Positions 2,499 through 4,858 of a stretch of 5,341 nucleotides of DNA are shown in pieces (position 1 is the stretch's first letter; every line of letters begins with the position of its first letter). Position numbers and translations under genes: made by a program. The stretch covers positions 1-5,341 of the forward strand of contig JABMDE010000074.1 in the NCBI GenBank assembly GCA_015904055.1, in the 5' to 3' direction. The notes beneath the pieces were generated by a model. It was not told the origin of the DNA and ran no database searches. It was given only the letters and a program-made list of their open reading frames with translations. The stretch is from Nitrospira sp. GTDB taxonomy: Bacteria; Nitrospirota; Nitrospiria; Nitrospirales; Nitrospiraceae.

Positions 2499-3298
2499 GC
2501 GGACGGCTGGAAACCACGTTTCGACGGTTGCGTGAGAAGAAAGAGAAAGCGCTCATTGCCTATCTCATGGCGGGTGACCCAGGATTGGCTGAGACAGAAC
2601 AACTGGTTGTGGCCTTAGAACAGGCCGGCGCCGATATCATTGAATTGGGTGTGCCCTTCTCCGATCCGATTGCCGATGGGCCGGTCATTCAGCAAGCTGC
2701 CGAGCGGGGGTTGAAGAGCGGCACAACACTGCGGAAAATTCTGGATTCCGTGAAGTCCCTCAGACAGCGTACTGAGATCCCGATCGTCCTCATGTTGTAC
2801 TACAACTCGATCCACGCCATGGGTTGTGGGCAGTTTTGCAAGGCTGCAACGGTTGCCGGAATCGATGGATTGATCGTGCCGGATATGCCGCCGGATGAAG
2901 CGGGACCGCTTAAGGGCCCGGCCGATGCCGCAGGCCTGCCGCTTATTTTTCTACTGGCACCGACCAGCACGCCCAGTCGACGAAAACTTGTGGCGGAAGA
3001 ATCACACGGGTTTGTCTATTACGTCTCCTTGACCGGTATCACTGGGGCGAAGCTCAGCAATGTGACGGACATCCAACAGAATGTGAAGAAGCTCAAGAAA
3101 GTCTCTGCCTCACCTGTCGCAGTCGGTTTCGGCGTGGCGACACCGGAAGATGCCGCGCAAGTCTCCAAAATGGCCGATGGGGTGATCGTCGGCAGCGCCA
3201 TTGTGAAACGCATTGCGTCCTATCAGCACGATCCCAAGATGGTCAGCCATGTTGCTGAGTTTGTGCGGTCGTTGAAAGCTGCGATGGCGCCGGCCTAG
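2495..3298 (+). CDS. trpA: Tryptophan synthase alpha chain
   Basis: TrpA cleaves indole-3-glycerol phosphate to indole and glyceraldehyde-3-phosphate; indole is channelled to TrpB. The 267-residue product is a full-length TIM barrel. Seen: AYLMAGDPG at 22-30; IIELGVPFSDPIADGPVIQ with catalytic Glu50 and Asp61; VLMLYYN at 98-104; IVPDMPPDE at 127-134; FLLAPTSTP at 152-160; YYVSLTGITGAKLS at 175-187, with the active-site Tyr and the mobile loop 6; VGFGVATPEDA at 210-220; and VGSAIVKRI at 232-240, the phosphate site. The start overlaps the trpB stop (ATGA), so it is coupled to trpB. The last ~50 codons have a second, decayed copy at 4694-4858, so this 3' end may have been exchanged during insertion of the downstream genes. 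No clear terminator follows. Confidence 0.98.
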   Translation: MSGRLETTFRRLREKKEKALIAYLMAGDPGLAETEQLVVALEQAGADIIELGVPFSDPIADGPVIQQAAERGLKSGTTLRKILDSVKSLRQRTEIPIVLMLYYNSIHAMGCGQFCKAATVAGIDGLIVPDMPPDEAGPLKGPADAAGLPLIFLLAPTSTPSRRKLVAEESHGFVYYVSLTGITGAKLSNVTDIQQNVKKLKKVSASPVAVGFGVATPEDAAQVSKMADGVIVGSAIVKRIASYQHDPKMVSHVAEFVRSLKAAMAPA

Positions 3299-3332
3299 CC
3301 AGCTACACTGGGATAGACTCTTCGTTTCTTGT

Positions 3333-3351
3333 CCTCGTTATAGTGACGAGG
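3333..3351 (+). promoter_or_regulatory. Palindrome over a possible -10 box before mntA
   Basis: Bases 3333-3340 pair with 3344-3351 (8 bp, including one G-T) around a 3-base loop. TATAGT (3339-3344) inside it matches five of six -10 bases, but no convincing -35 box lies 16-18 bases upstream. There is no T-run after the stem, so it is a poor terminator for trpA. A palindrome covering a promoter would suit an operator of the antitoxin gene that follows; this is inference. Confidence 0.3.
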
Positions 3352-3399
3352 TAAGATGGCGTCGGTGAAATGTGCGTGCTGGGTGTAGTCAGGGACATC

Positions 3400-3819
3400 A
3401 TGAAGACAGCCCTCCATACCATTCCTCCAGAGCAGCGAGAAGATGTGTTGGCGAAGCTCCGTGTTGAATTGGCACGGGTATCAGGGCTGCGCTTTGTCTA
3501 TCTGTATGGGTCGGCGCTTGAGTCCGACAGGGTTCATGATGTGGACGTTGGGATTTTTCTTGATGATTCGATGGACGCACTGCAGATGAATATGATGGAT
3601 GCTCTCTCGGTAACGCTCTCAGCCGCTGTGGGAGTGCCTGTTGATATTCGGATGCTCAATGCGGCACCACTGCCGTTCCTCTACCATGTGCTGCGAGGGA
3701 AGTTGGTGCTGTGTCGAGACGAGACCTTCTTGACCGATATGCTGGAAGATGTCGCCCGCCGCTACCTTGACCTTGCCCCGTTCCTCCGCAACGGCACGAA
3801 GGAAGCCTTCGCCGCATGA
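3400..3819 (+). CDS. mntA: MntA-type minimal nucleotidyltransferase antitoxin
   Basis: The product is a small nucleotidyltransferase of the MNT family. In characterised MntA-HepT pairs this protein neutralises the HepT RNase by adding AMP to a tyrosine of the toxin. With the ATG at 3400 it is 139 residues, a normal length. Seen: YLYGSA with the Gly37-Ser38 signature; HDVDVGIFLD with metal-binding Asp47 and Asp49 (GS-x8-DxD); VPVDIRMLN with the third acidic residue, Asp82; and the usual C-terminal helix RRYLDLAPFLR. AGGGA (3391-3395) lies 4 bases before this ATG. An in-frame ATG at 3370 would add ten residues (MCVLGVVRDI) with no close ribosome binding site; I prefer 3400 but cannot exclude 3370. 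The gene starts about 100 bases after trpA on the same strand and overlaps the hepT start by ATGA. Because hepT is truncated, this antitoxin is now an orphan in this window. Confidence 0.88.
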   Translation: MKTALHTIPPEQREDVLAKLRVELARVSGLRFVYLYGSALESDRVHDVDVGIFLDDSMDALQMNMMDALSVTLSAAVGVPVDIRMLNAAPLPFLYHVLRGKLVLCRDETFLTDMLEDVARRYLDLAPFLRNGTKEAFAA

Positions 3820-3926
3820 GCCTGAATCCGGACCTCATCCGGGCACGGTGCGTTGAGATCGATACATCGTTGATCCGGCTTGAAGAGATCGGCCGTCTGT
3901 CTCGCGAGACATTCCTTTCCAACTAA
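3816..3926 (+). pseudogene. hepT: HepT-like (DUF86) toxin, truncated after 36 codons
   Basis: The frame begins with ATG overlapping the mntA stop (ATGA), the classic layout of an MntA-HepT pair, and encodes MSLNPDLIRARCVEID and onward to LEEIGRLSRETFLSN. This matches the N-terminal helix region expected of HepT/DUF86 proteins, which are usually 110-145 residues. It stops at TAA (3924-3926), so the catalytic Rx4-6H motif and the following tyrosine that MntA modifies are absent. I find no continuation of HepT in the three + frames immediately downstream, so this looks like loss of the 3' part by deletion or recombination near 3920 rather than a point nonsense mutation. The remnant cannot be an active RNase. 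The N-terminal match is from recognition of the family, without a search. Confidence 0.75.
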
Positions 3927-4101
3927 AACAACCTACATCTACTTGTTCGCTGGGGGATTCGTGGTGATTCACGGCAGAATTCCTGGAAAATTTCCCCATC
4001 AGTTACTCATTGTGCCTGACTGCTCTTTTCCCCGTCGGTCTCGCGCAACCTCGCCGAAGAGAGTTGACAGGTGTTAGGTGACAGGCTACGGTACTGTCTG
4101 A
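3927..4101. other. Gap between truncated hepT and higB, no gene recognised
   Basis: No coding region is supported here. A + frame from 3880 to 4077 stays open but overlaps hepT out of frame and shows no family motif. The right end holds the heptad repeat and likely higBA promoter described separately. The breakpoint that removed the rest of hepT must lie near the left end. An 11-base word, CCTGACTGCTC, at about 4016 recurs near 4900, which may be chance. Confidence 0.5.
4064..4098 (+). promoter_or_regulatory. Likely higBA promoter with heptad repeat and operator-like palindrome
   Basis: TTGACA (4064-4069) is a perfect -35 box. After 17 bases comes TACGGT (4087-4092), which keeps the T, A and final T of a -10 box. 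Three 7-mers, TGACAGG (4065), TGTTAGG (4072) and TGACAGG (4079), run through the spacer. GACAG (4080-4084) and CTGTC (4094-4098) form an inverted repeat centred on the -10 box, a plausible site for autorepression by the HigA protein, as known for HigBA systems. Predicted transcription would start within a few bases of the higB ATG at 4102, giving a nearly leaderless message. The boxes are visible; the regulation is inferred. Confidence 0.5.
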
Positions 4102-4392
4102 ATGAAGATCAGGAACTTTGTGCATAAGGGCCTCAAATGGCTCTATGCCGAGGATAGAGCCCGTGGGTTGCCACCTGAGACTGTGGAGAAGTTGCGCAAG
4201 ATGTTCGCCTATCTGGACAACATGCAAGAGCCCGGAGAGCTTCGAGCGCTTCGAGGGTGGAAAGCGCATACGTTGACTGGCGATCGCAAAGGGACGTGGA
4301 GCTTGAGCGTCACCAGGAACCGGCGATTGACGTTTCATATTGATCTGGAAGAGGGCGACATCTGCGACGTGAACCTGGAAGACTACCATTAG
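4102..4392 (+). CDS. higB: HigB-family toxin of a type II toxin-antitoxin system
   Basis: The 96-residue product belongs to the RelE/HigB fold of ribosome-dependent mRNA endonucleases, which cut translated mRNA and stop growth when not bound by HigA. Seen: the N-terminal FVHKGLKWLY at 6-15; the helix region TVEKLRKMFAYLD at 27-39; the core GWKAHTLTGDRKGTWSLSV at 52-70 with the typical H-x-L-x-GDxKGxWS pattern; TRNRRLTFHID at 71-81, where the conserved Asn-Arg-Arg lies at the expected active site; and the terminal DVNLEDYH, a hallmark ending of this family. The length is standard and nothing seems missing. No ribosome binding site precedes the ATG, consistent with the nearly leaderless promoter placement. 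The antitoxin follows 16 bases later, toxin first as is usual for hig loci. Confidence 0.92.
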   Translation: MKIRNFVHKGLKWLYAEDRARGLPPETVEKLRKMFAYLDNMQEPGELRALRGWKAHTLTGDRKGTWSLSVTRNRRLTFHIDLEEGDICDVNLEDYH

Positions 4393-4408
4393 GAGAGGAG
4401 ATCCACAC

Positions 4409-4708
4409 ATGCCTATGAAGAACCCACCGCATCCTGGAGACTTTATCCGAACGGAGGTCATCGAGCCTGCAGGCCTGTCGGTGACTGCAGCCGCCAAGGC
4501 TCTTCAGGTGTCGCGTCCAGCCTTGTCGAGTCTCCTGAACGGGAAGGCTGATTTATCCGGGGAGATGGCGTTGCGGCTGGAGAAGGCGTTCGGCGTACAG
4601 ATGGATACTCTTATGCGGATGCAAACAGCCTACGATATTGCCCAGACCCGTAAGCAAGCGAAACACGTCCGTGTCCACCGGCTTGTGCTATCTGTGGCGC
4701 ACTCCTAA
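4409..4708 (+). CDS. higA: HigA-family antitoxin, XRE-type helix-turn-helix
   Basis: The 99-residue product binds and neutralises HigB and is expected to repress the higBA promoter. Seen: NPPHPGDFIRTEVIEPAGLSVTAAAKALQVS at 5-35, then RPALSSLLNGKADLSGEMALRLEKAFG at 36-62, which together form the helix-turn-helix of the HigA subfamily (PxHPGxxL; S-R-x-x-x-S-x-L-L-N-G). The segment MRMQTAYDIAQTRKQAK at 69-85 is the typical helix after it. AGGAGAGGAG just after the higB stop gives a strong ribosome binding site 8 bases before the ATG; Met3 is an alternative start. The final residues are unusual: the stop TAA (4706-4708) lies within DNA similar to the trpA 3' end that begins near 4694, so the last few residues (about VAHS) are probably read from trpA-derived sequence. 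The core fold should be unaffected. Confidence 0.92.
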   Translation: MPMKNPPHPGDFIRTEVIEPAGLSVTAAAKALQVSRPALSSLLNGKADLSGEMALRLEKAFGVQMDTLMRMQTAYDIAQTRKQAKHVRVHRLVLSVAHS

Positions 4709-4858
4709 GGATGCCGCGCAAGTCTCGAAAATGGCCGATGGGGTGATCGTCGGCAGCGCCATCGTGAAACGCATTGCGTCCCACCAACAGGATCCTGAAA
4801 TGATCGGCCACGTTGCCGAGTTTGTCCGATCACTCGAGTCGCCATGGTGCCAGCCTAG
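4694..4858 (+). pseudogene. trpA: Second copy of the trpA 3' end (headless remnant)
   Basis: From about 4694 to the TAG at 4856-4858 the sequence repeats 3134-3298 of trpA. In the collinear block 4710-4838 versus 3149-3277, I count 20 differences in 129 bases; 37 of 43 encoded residues are identical, including KMADGVIVGSAIVKRIAS and HVAEFVRSL. Differences are mainly silent, so the copy descends from a working trpA. It lacks the first ~215 codons and so cannot make a TIM barrel. One extra base near 4700 and one missing base near 4842 shift the frame relative to trpA, but the original stop is still recognisable. Similarity fades just after the stop. The copy lies in direct orientation, about 1,560 bases from its twin, and overlaps the last codons of higA. 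Confidence 0.93.

What the first reader, a model, noticed from the sequence alone, without database searches (positions are those of the whole stretch)
3134..4858. Toxin-antitoxin cluster bracketed by direct repeats of the trpA 3' end
The last ~50 codons of trpA recur in the same orientation 1,560 bases downstream, and mntA, a hepT remnant and higBA lie between. This is what results when incoming DNA carrying its own trpA tail recombines into trpA: the gene stays whole and the displaced tail is left as a remnant. It resembles how islands use the 3' ends of tRNA or guaA genes, but no integrase is seen here and the target is a biosynthetic gene. The trpA 3' end could be an unrecognised landing site for accessory genes.
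Basis: partly seen in the sequence, partly recalled or inferred. Interest (0 to 1): 0.75.

Follow-up and report, generated by a model that had tools for sequence, protein, structure and literature searches.

The report
Toxin-gene hotspot between two core genes
In a group of Nitrospira bacteria, foreign genes, often toxin-antitoxin pairs, keep being added between the tryptophan gene trpA and its neighbour, apparently by recombination that gives the core gene a new end and leaves its old end behind as a scar.

Summary
The repeat is real: window 4694-4858 is a degraded copy of the last ~165 nt of trpA (2495-3298), same orientation, start-to-start 1,561 nt, with mntA, a truncated hepT and higBA between. 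It is not a one-off: 13 of 50 related genomes (TrpA 82% or more identical) carry an extra trpA 3' fragment; with the window there are at least eight join types. Some relatives have trpA facing a convergent 201-codon gene ("c0") only about 45-140 nt away; others hold 0.4 to over 10 kb of varied cargo there. In the window and several relatives the DNA after the displaced tail matches the DNA after intact trpA elsewhere (window vs L145: one 252-nt alignment, 83%, through the stop codon). Pairs sharing trpA-adjacent cargo are unexpectedly alike in trpA's last 134 nt (P=0.0008). c0 leaves 3' remnants too; trpB and c1-c5 were not seen to. No tyrosine recombinase lies near in 11 tested genomes. Best reading: recombination anchored in a flanking core gene plus a non-homologous join stacks modules here. 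Local duplication of the resident end is not excluded: tree tests reject it in 0 of 7 cases and favour it for the window.

The parts
2495..3298 (+). trpA, intact (267 codons + stop); left flank of the hotspot
   Evidence: PF00290 2.8e-90; best relative 95% identical
3299..3369 (+). spacer trpA-mntA; aligned with mntA as one block from nt 1-10 after the trpA stop to L001, L008 and L171
3370..3819 (+). mntA, nucleotidyltransferase-type antitoxin (start may be 3400)
   Evidence: PF18765 3.6e-11; NCBIfam NF047752 48.5 bits, below cut-off 60
3816..3926 (+). hepT 5' remnant (36 codons)
   Evidence: ORF ends at 3926, no family match of its own; DNA similarity to mntA-hepT of L001, L011, L148, L153, L171 ends near 3933; full HepT in L001 is PF01934 2.1e-28
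3933..3934 (.). inferred join: mntA-hepT block meets higBA block
   Evidence: similarity ends at +635 or +636 in 5 of 6 relatives, +618 in L008; inference
4102..4392 (+). higB toxin
   Evidence: PF05015 9.3e-11, over cut-off; no NCBIfam match
4409..4708 (+). higA antitoxin; its last codons lie in the trpA tail
   Evidence: TIGR02607 9.1e-28; alignment at the join
4694..4858 (+). displaced trpA 3' tail (trpA nt ~640-804)
4860..4958 (+). old downstream spacer of trpA, carried with the displaced tail
   Evidence: 85.9% to L145 nt 5-103 after its intact trpA stop; continuous 252-nt alignment with the tail, 83%, one gap
4855..5271 (-). ORF with weak Fic-like match, probable remnant; further cargo
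   Evidence: PF02661 E=0.012, below cut-off

Best explanation
The gap between the convergent core genes trpA and c0 is a hotspot filled by recombination with DNA of related Nitrospira, not by an integrase. Incoming DNA pairs with the 3' part of trpA (sometimes of c0); the crossover gives the recipient gene the donor's 3' end plus the cargo attached to it. The far end of the incoming piece has no partner and is joined without homology, either directly (homology-facilitated illegitimate recombination, HFIR) or because the piece was first closed into a circle that then entered by one crossover. If that join falls upstream of the old stop codon, the resident 3' end and its old downstream DNA stay behind as a displaced tail. 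Repeated rounds stack modules. In the window one join lies at higA/tail (~4694) and another at hepT/spacer (~3933), so probably at least two steps. Toxin-antitoxin genes may be common in tail-flanked segments because losing the module by recombination between the two trpA copies would harm the cell. Shown: the hotspot, its recurrence, old downstream DNA after several tails, co-variation of trpA and c0 3' ends with adjacent cargo, no PF00589 recombinase nearby in the 11 genomes tested. Inferred: the non-homologous join, RecA, the order of steps, the role of addiction.
For: c0 lies about 45-140 nt after trpA in L004, L007, L155, L169, L172 of the close clade and in the 73-75% TrpA group, with 0.4 to over 10 kb of cargo between in others. 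Extra trpA 3' fragments in 13 of 50 genomes with TrpA of 82% or more. After the tail comes the DNA that follows intact trpA elsewhere: window-L145, L011/L153-L148/L150, L152-L005/L149/L150/L015, L161-L148/L150, L175-L147/L145; matches of about 60-100 nt, 72-87%. Of core-gene pieces in 189,823 cargo bases, both strands, only trpA and c0 3' ends occur, native orientation; none from trpB or c1-c5 outside the L010 deletion. Each genome with trpB shows one strong match to its C-terminus, G076 (two partial) apart; the list was cut at E about 0.003. Pairs sharing trpA-adjacent cargo exceed expectation in trpA 671-804 (+2.2 points, P=0.0008), and in c0's third and last quarters (P=0.0002, 0.056). L153 versus L011: first part of trpA identical, middle segment 88%, rest identical, so homologous exchange occurs inside trpA. 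By identity, own trpA is unlikely to be the tail's closest relative (bootstrap P under 0.03) for 8 of 13 pieces.
Against: Tree tests do not reject tail plus own trpA as one clade in any of 7 cases: six AU p values of 0.20-0.69, and in L013 they already form a clade (support 82). For the window the tree holding them together scored 12 log units better than the quick free tree. A rise of divergence towards the hotspot vanished when sisters were chosen independently. Clade signal is lowest at trpA 671-804 among the trpB/trpA windows, but ordinary linkage decay could do that, and c4 on the other side is lower still. trpA 1-134 also gave P=0.016, and c0's first quarter went the other way (-2.6 points). 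No donor-recipient pair was caught, so microhomology at the join is untested. Published HFIR is rare and generally deletes about as much as it adds (PMC3240628, abstract and introduction). Old downstream DNA was not found after the tails of L013, L018, L020, L021, L159, L015 or L173.
Confidence: 0.65

Rival explanations
1. Insertion with long target duplication: the module inserts and copies a stretch of the resident trpA end (as described for restriction-modification genes in Helicobacter pylori). No donor trpA end is involved.
For: Gives the same anatomy: repeat, cargo, repeat plus old downstream DNA. Tree tests reject tail plus own trpA in 0 of 7 cases, and for the window that tree scored 12 log units better than the free quick tree. 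L021's piece 698-795 is closest to its own trpA (bootstrap 0.999). Selfish RM genes are the published type of cargo (PMC1643837, passages).
Against: Identity ranking places other species' trpA closer to the tail for 8 of 13 pieces, the window's among them. trpA 3' ends co-vary with adjacent cargo. c0 leaves remnants as well, so the copied target would have to be either flank.
Confidence: 0.21
2. A site-specific integrase targets the trpA 3' end, as e14 does in icd, and the integrase gene has been lost or lies elsewhere.
For: Displaced 3' end with a restored gene is the classic scar of such elements (icdA/icdC with 11-bp direct repeats and excision of e14: PMC4759930, passages).
Against: No PF00589 domain within about 80 kb on the trpA contig in 11 of 11 tail genomes tested, though many of these contigs are short; G069, G090 and the window's genome were not tested. 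Fragments start at nt 420 to about 730 and those of L015 (685-733) and L018 (555-624) share no core. c0 leaves remnants too. Serine recombinases were not searched.
Confidence: 0.05
3. IS or Y1/IS200-like transposases drive the hotspot and the tails are by-products.
For: Y1 transposase-like ORFs form cluster c8 in 13 loci; DDE, rve and IstB domains occur in the cargo.
Against: No transposase was matched among the ORFs examined in the tail-flanked segments of the window, L013 and the mntA-hepT loci, though not every small ORF was scanned; transposition is not known to me to copy host gene ends of 70-375 nt or to carry trpA 3' ends along.
Confidence: 0.05
4. Assembly or binning artefact.
For: Nearly all relatives are metagenome assemblies; some contigs end at trpA (L002, L023).
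Against: Independent assemblies of different species show the same joins (L011/L153; L018/L020/L021/L159; L161/L164; L013/L173), some on long contigs (G111 1.8 Mb, G074 0.33 Mb); tails differ from own trpA by 7-33%.
Confidence: 0.02

Closest known systems
[quoted passage not shown] 2017, PMC5635113; passages incl. abstract)
   Same: One spot between two core genes, high turnover of cargo, no integrase in many hotspots, recombination in the flanking genes.
   Different: That model is double homologous recombination, which should leave no scar. Here displaced 3' ends of both flanking genes record one-sided events.
Core defence hotspots of Pseudomonas aeruginosa, cDHS1/2 (PMC10250203; passages and discussion)
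   Same: Core-gene-flanked locus with variable cargo and no single mobilising element; the authors leave open how such loci are built.
   Different: Here the cargo next to trpA is small and often toxin-antitoxin, and the flanks carry scars of how it was added.
Sequential displacement of T6SS effector-immunity modules in Vibrio cholerae, and orphan Rhs ends (PMC5361080; passages)
   Same: A conserved anchor plus a non-homologous join pushes the old 3' part downstream; the authors propose HFIR.
   Different: There the anchor region belongs to the polymorphic toxin cluster; here it is a biosynthetic gene that stays whole, and cargo is unrelated to it.
Insertion with long target duplication (Nobusato et al. 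2000, recalled; mentioned in PMC1643837 and PMC4978471, passages)
   Same: Selfish gene pair flanked by long direct repeats of host sequence.
   Different: There the repeat is taken as a copy of the resident target; here intact end and tail may differ in origin, not proven.
Prophage e14 in icd (PMC4759930, passages)
   Same: Displaced 3' gene end (icdC) with restored gene (icdA).
   Different: Site-specific recombination in 11-bp repeats there; no linked recombinase or shared core found here.

Membership tests
Core-gene-flanked recombination hotspot (PMC5635113) | Same two core genes bound variable cargo in many genomes | tested here: met
   trpA and c0 flank nearly nothing to over 10 kb
Core-gene-flanked recombination hotspot (PMC5635113) | Homologous recombination in flanking core genes | tested here: met
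   Co-variation of trpA and c0 3' ends with adjacent cargo; internal exchange in L153 trpA. A divergence gradient was not confirmed.
Core-gene-flanked recombination hotspot (PMC5635113) | No integrase or transposase (for the subset without mobility genes) | tested here: inconclusive
   No PF00589 near in 11 of 11 genomes tested, but transposase genes occur in some cargo
Homology-facilitated illegitimate recombination product | One homologous end | tested here: met
   3' end of trpA linked to adjacent cargo; indirect, statistical
Homology-facilitated illegitimate recombination product | Non-homologous join with 3-10 bp microhomology | not testable with these tools
   No donor-recipient pair held; joins inspected
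Homology-facilitated illegitimate recombination product | Deletion of similar size to the insertion | tested here: inconclusive
   Tail joins keep resident DNA; L010 shows a c0-c1 deletion
Integrase-type island at a gene 3' end | Linked integrase | tested here: not met
   PF00589 in 11 of the 13 tail genomes, none near; none among the 7 window proteins scanned; serine recombinases not tested
Integrase-type island at a gene 3' end | Common core at both ends | tested here: not met
   Fragments share no common segment; decay of old cores cannot be ruled out
Insertion with long target duplication | Both repeats are copies of one resident sequence | tested here: inconclusive
   Identity ranking against in 8 of 13 pieces; tree tests do not reject in 7 of 7
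HigBA toxin-antitoxin | HigB toxin and HigA antitoxin models | tested here: met
   PF05015 over cut-off, TIGR02607 over cut-off; no NCBIfam match for HigB
MntA-HepT toxin-antitoxin | MntA and complete HepT | tested here: not met
   MntA 48.5 bits below cut-off 60; HepT cut to 36 codons, no match. Complete HepT in L001.

The most novel reading that the evidence does not exclude
Toxin-antitoxin modules in Nitrospira spread as integrase-free cassettes that carry the 3' end of a core gene as their address. Each arrival restores trpA, leaves another trpA tail that can serve as homology for the next round, and is held in place by addiction: a self-renewing docking site comparable in effect to an integron, built only from homologous recombination and end joining.
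Probability: 0.25. Interest if true: 0.78.

Novelty: new variant of a known kind. Interest (0 to 1): 0.62.

Why it matters
How core-gene-flanked defence and toxin hotspots are built without mobile elements is an openly stated question (PMC10250203, discussion), made hard because double homologous recombination leaves no scar. This locus seems to keep scars: displaced 3' ends of both flanking genes, in several cases with the old neighbouring DNA still attached. That allows insertions to be counted, ordered and tested, and the same signature (orphan 3' ends of core genes next to their parent) can be searched for in any genome collection.

Tried and rejected
Integrase landing site: no linked PF00589 in the 11 genomes tested and no shared core. 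Chance repeat: excluded by E-values and recurrence. Divergence gradient towards the hotspot: one search showed a rise (ratio 0.30 to 0.59), but sisters had been chosen on the same gene; with sisters chosen by c2 (n=19), c3 (n=11) or, for the other side, trpB (n=2-9 per gene) there was no gradient, so I drop it. Clade-signal decay is compatible but not discriminating. Proof that tails are foreign: tree tests did not reject the local-copy tree (7 of 8 planned cases ran, quick trees; the eighth, L011, stopped with an error because the test found too few different rows). Viral origin: the trpA search of viral contigs gave no relative. trpA tails in the more distant groups: one short hit (L190, 42 nt) in 7 loci examined. 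A wide tally of cargo families (128 of 132 dereplicated ORFs of 90 codons or more, drawn from 183) was too mixed to name a theme; only 25 of 178 and of 141 families were shown, so absence of a family there proves nothing. I did not measure how frequent TA genes are in cargo without tails, so no enrichment is claimed. The co-variation test was run twice: first on 48 loci including empty ones (trpA 671-804 P=0.0002, trpA 1-134 P=0.03), then on 43 with cargo; thresholds (300 nt, 50-nt match starting within 90 nt) were mine. The two groups were hand-picked lists of 12 and 11 loci. Literature. The listings show no title on a trpA hotspot or this Nitrospira locus, but only the 15 and 12 listed were seen, and most subscription papers are not held. 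PMC2884548 and PMC4615327 (passages) were looked at and not used.
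Full report
OBSERVATION. The window carries trpA preceded by what look like the end of trpC, trpF and trpB, then mntA, a hepT remnant, higB, higA and a second trpA end (the names trpC, trpF and trpB are recalled, no family search named them). The repeat is 131 nt at 85% in the strict search and about 165 nt (trpA nt 640-804, window 4694-4858) when relatives are used as queries. It ends at the trpA stop codon. HigA's last codons run into it.

RELATIVES. No whole genome is held for the window. 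A scan of genome contigs gave 80 loci, of which L001-L052 are titled Nitrospira, Nitrospirota/Nitrospirae or close, one labelled Nitrosospira. A genus-level search from G001 covered 79 genomes; 73 have a TrpA match, 50 of them at 82% identity or more, two of these partial. I fetched trpA surroundings for those not already held, plus nine loci of a more distant group and three contigs with tails. L016 was dropped as the same contig as L169.

THE LOCUS. In the more distant group (TrpA 73-75%: L022, L176-L184) and in L004, L007, L155, L169 and L172 of the close clade, trpA is followed after about 45-140 nt by a convergent gene of about 201 codons, here called c0, then usually c1, c4, c2, c3 on the same minus strand. 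c0 resembles lipoprotein families DUF4823/GNA1162 only below cut-off. In many other loci of the close clade 0.4 to over 10 kb of varied cargo lies between trpA and c0: cytochrome bd, a lactonase-like protein, a methyltransferase, a reverse transcriptase, IS genes and TA genes. In a number of loci c0 is not on the held stretch.

RECURRENCE. Extra trpA 3' fragments were found in 13 of 50 genomes: G003, G004, G005, G006, G007, G008, G069, G074, G075, G080, G090, G107, G111. Those of G005 (49 nt) and G006 (72 nt) are short; that of G069 lies on another contig than its trpA. A search of both strands found them in the trpA orientation only. Several contigs end at trpA, so this is a lower bound. G090's intact trpA is split over two contigs; its real tail starts about 1.3 kb further on. 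With the window, joins fall into at least eight types by position and neighbouring DNA: the window; L011/L153 (nt 730); L013/L173 (about 559-573); L015 (685-733); L018/L020/L021/L159 (about 526-555, after a BrnA-like gene); L152 (420); L161/L164/L174 (about 676); L175 (701). Shared joins suggest that some tail-bearing arrangements have since spread between species.

DISPLACED DNA. If a tail is the displaced resident end, the resident's downstream DNA should follow it. It does in the window: tail plus 99 nt match the end of trpA plus spacer of L145, the closest relative by TrpA, in one 252-nt alignment (83%, one gap) that crosses the stop codon. L145 is not an empty locus; it has other cargo further on. 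The same kind of match holds for L011/L153, L152 and L161 and L175, against loci that themselves carry cargo (L148 for instance also carries mntA-hepT); L164's post-tail DNA matches that after the window's and L175's tails. It was not found for L013, L018, L020, L021, L159, L015 and L173; for some of these little DNA or no matching relative is held.

SYMMETRY AND CONTROL. I searched 189,823 bases between trpA and c0 (or the end of the held stretch) for pieces of trpB, trpA, c0, c1, c4, c2, c3 and c5. Apart from native genes, only trpA and c0 pieces occur: trpA 3' fragments in 12 loci and c0 3' fragments in L019, L166/L167 and L171, in native orientation. L010 (native genes after a c0-c1 deletion) and the native c0 at the end of L171 were set aside. 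Two further c0 fragments appear (G129 C59, G101 C33). Each genome with trpB gave one strong match to its C-terminus, G076 (two partial) apart; the list was cut at E about 0.003, so very short pieces could be hidden. For c0 remnants the old neighbouring DNA was seen only in L019 (94 nt, 80%, same genome).

CO-VARIATION. Among 43 loci with cargo, pairs that share the first DNA after trpA are more alike in trpA 671-804 than the rest of trpB/trpA predicts (+2.2 points, permutation P=0.0008). Of eight other windows seven show nothing below 0.05 and trpA 1-134 gives P=0.016. On the other side (26 loci, 21 sharing pairs) c0's third quarter gives P=0.0002, its last quarter 0.056, its second 0.15 and its first the opposite sign. 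So the ends of both flanking genes tend to travel with adjacent cargo. L171, otherwise closest to the L018-like group, carries mntA-hepT like L001 and the window, and only in trpA 701-800 is its closest match in the L001 group (0.87 against 0.83). L009 is a mosaic: trpB groups with the L018-like group, trpA up to nt 700 is closest to the L001 group, and trpA 701-800 to the L018-like group again (0.91 against 0.86).

ORIGIN OF TAILS. By identity, a bootstrap gives own trpA a chance under 0.03 of being the closest sequence in 8 of 13 pieces (L013, L018, L020, L021a, L159, L161, L164, window), is undecided in 4 (L011 and L153, which share one join, L015, L152), and favours own trpA in 1 (L021b). 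By maximum likelihood, tail plus own trpA is not rejected in any of 7 cases: six AU p values of 0.20-0.69, and in L013 they already form a clade. For the window the joined tree scored 12 log units better than the quick free search, for L159 0.4 better. Short alignments limit both. I therefore keep local duplication as a live rival.

CARGO BETWEEN TRPA AND TAIL. Window: MntA, HigBA. L011/L153: MntA-HepT by DNA similarity to L001. L013: TacA-type antitoxin and GNAT protein; G090 the same pair. L020: BrnT (PF04365 1.7e-24) with a CopG-like antitoxin below cut-off; L018 and L021 share that DNA. L152: Gp49-type toxin with HTH, Phd and PIN; L161 shares the first part by DNA. L159: HTH protein; L164 shares that DNA; an HTH protein alone is weak evidence of a TA pair. 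L015: DUF4238 protein and an ORF of the Y1-like cluster c8, no TA seen. So six of seven join types with a definable segment hold TA or TA-like genes, one of them (L161/L164/L174) on DNA similarity only; L175 cannot be judged because its intact trpA is on another contig. No baseline was measured.

MECHANISM. The pattern fits one homologous end in trpA (or c0) and one non-homologous end. HFIR is defined so in PMC3240628 (abstract, introduction and start of methods), which also describes circularisation and single crossover as another fate of linear DNA. Both would give trpA-cargo-tail. In the window the two similarity breaks (3933 and about 4694) each cut the gene before them (hepT, and higA slightly), as expected if joins are random. 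These are inferences; no event was watched.

KNOWN KINDS. [quoted passage not shown] In the passages I saw, none describes displaced 3' ends of a biosynthetic gene and of its convergent neighbour on both sides of such a hotspot.

VERDICT.

Noticed in passing
window 474-570: The gap before trpF holds inverted-repeat-like stretches (gcgtatctcgtgaagcgtgaagcgc / gagatacgagatacgcttcacgtttcacg) that look like a REP-type palindrome; seen by eye only.
   Followed up: no
window 4855-5271 (-): ORF with an HPFREGIGR-like stretch; weak Fic match below cut-off, probably a remnant.
   Followed up: partly
L153 trpA, middle segment: Internal piece replaced: L011 and L153 are identical on both sides but 88% in the middle alignment segment, where L153 is 96% to L003 (segments are alignment columns).
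   Followed up: partly
L186 and L164 (G111 C1): A block with cargo, c0, c1, c4 and more is present twice on one contig, the two c0 about 16.7 kb apart, 97.7% identical; real duplication or mixed strains.
   Followed up: partly
L148/L185 and L149 (G076 C1 and C3): Two trpA copies; the trpB on C1 lacks about 115 nt near its 3' end and C3 starts inside trpB; possibly mixed strains.
   Followed up: partly
L010: Deletion fuses a c0 3' piece to a c1 5' piece right after trpA.
   Followed up: no
cluster c8 (13 loci, e.g. L005:11013-11528): Y1/IS200-like transposase ORF; its DNA block starts at nearly the same point in many loci and occurs twice in L019, L011 and L150.
   Followed up: no
L190 (G105): A 42-nt trpA tail (nt 751-792, 90%) 1.9 kb after trpA in a distant group (TrpA about 70%), so the habit may be older than the close clade.
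   Followed up: no
G020, G032, G135, G136, G167: Genomes of the family but outside the genus set also gave two matches to the TrpA C-terminus (in G032 both look full length, the match list was cut).
   Followed up: no
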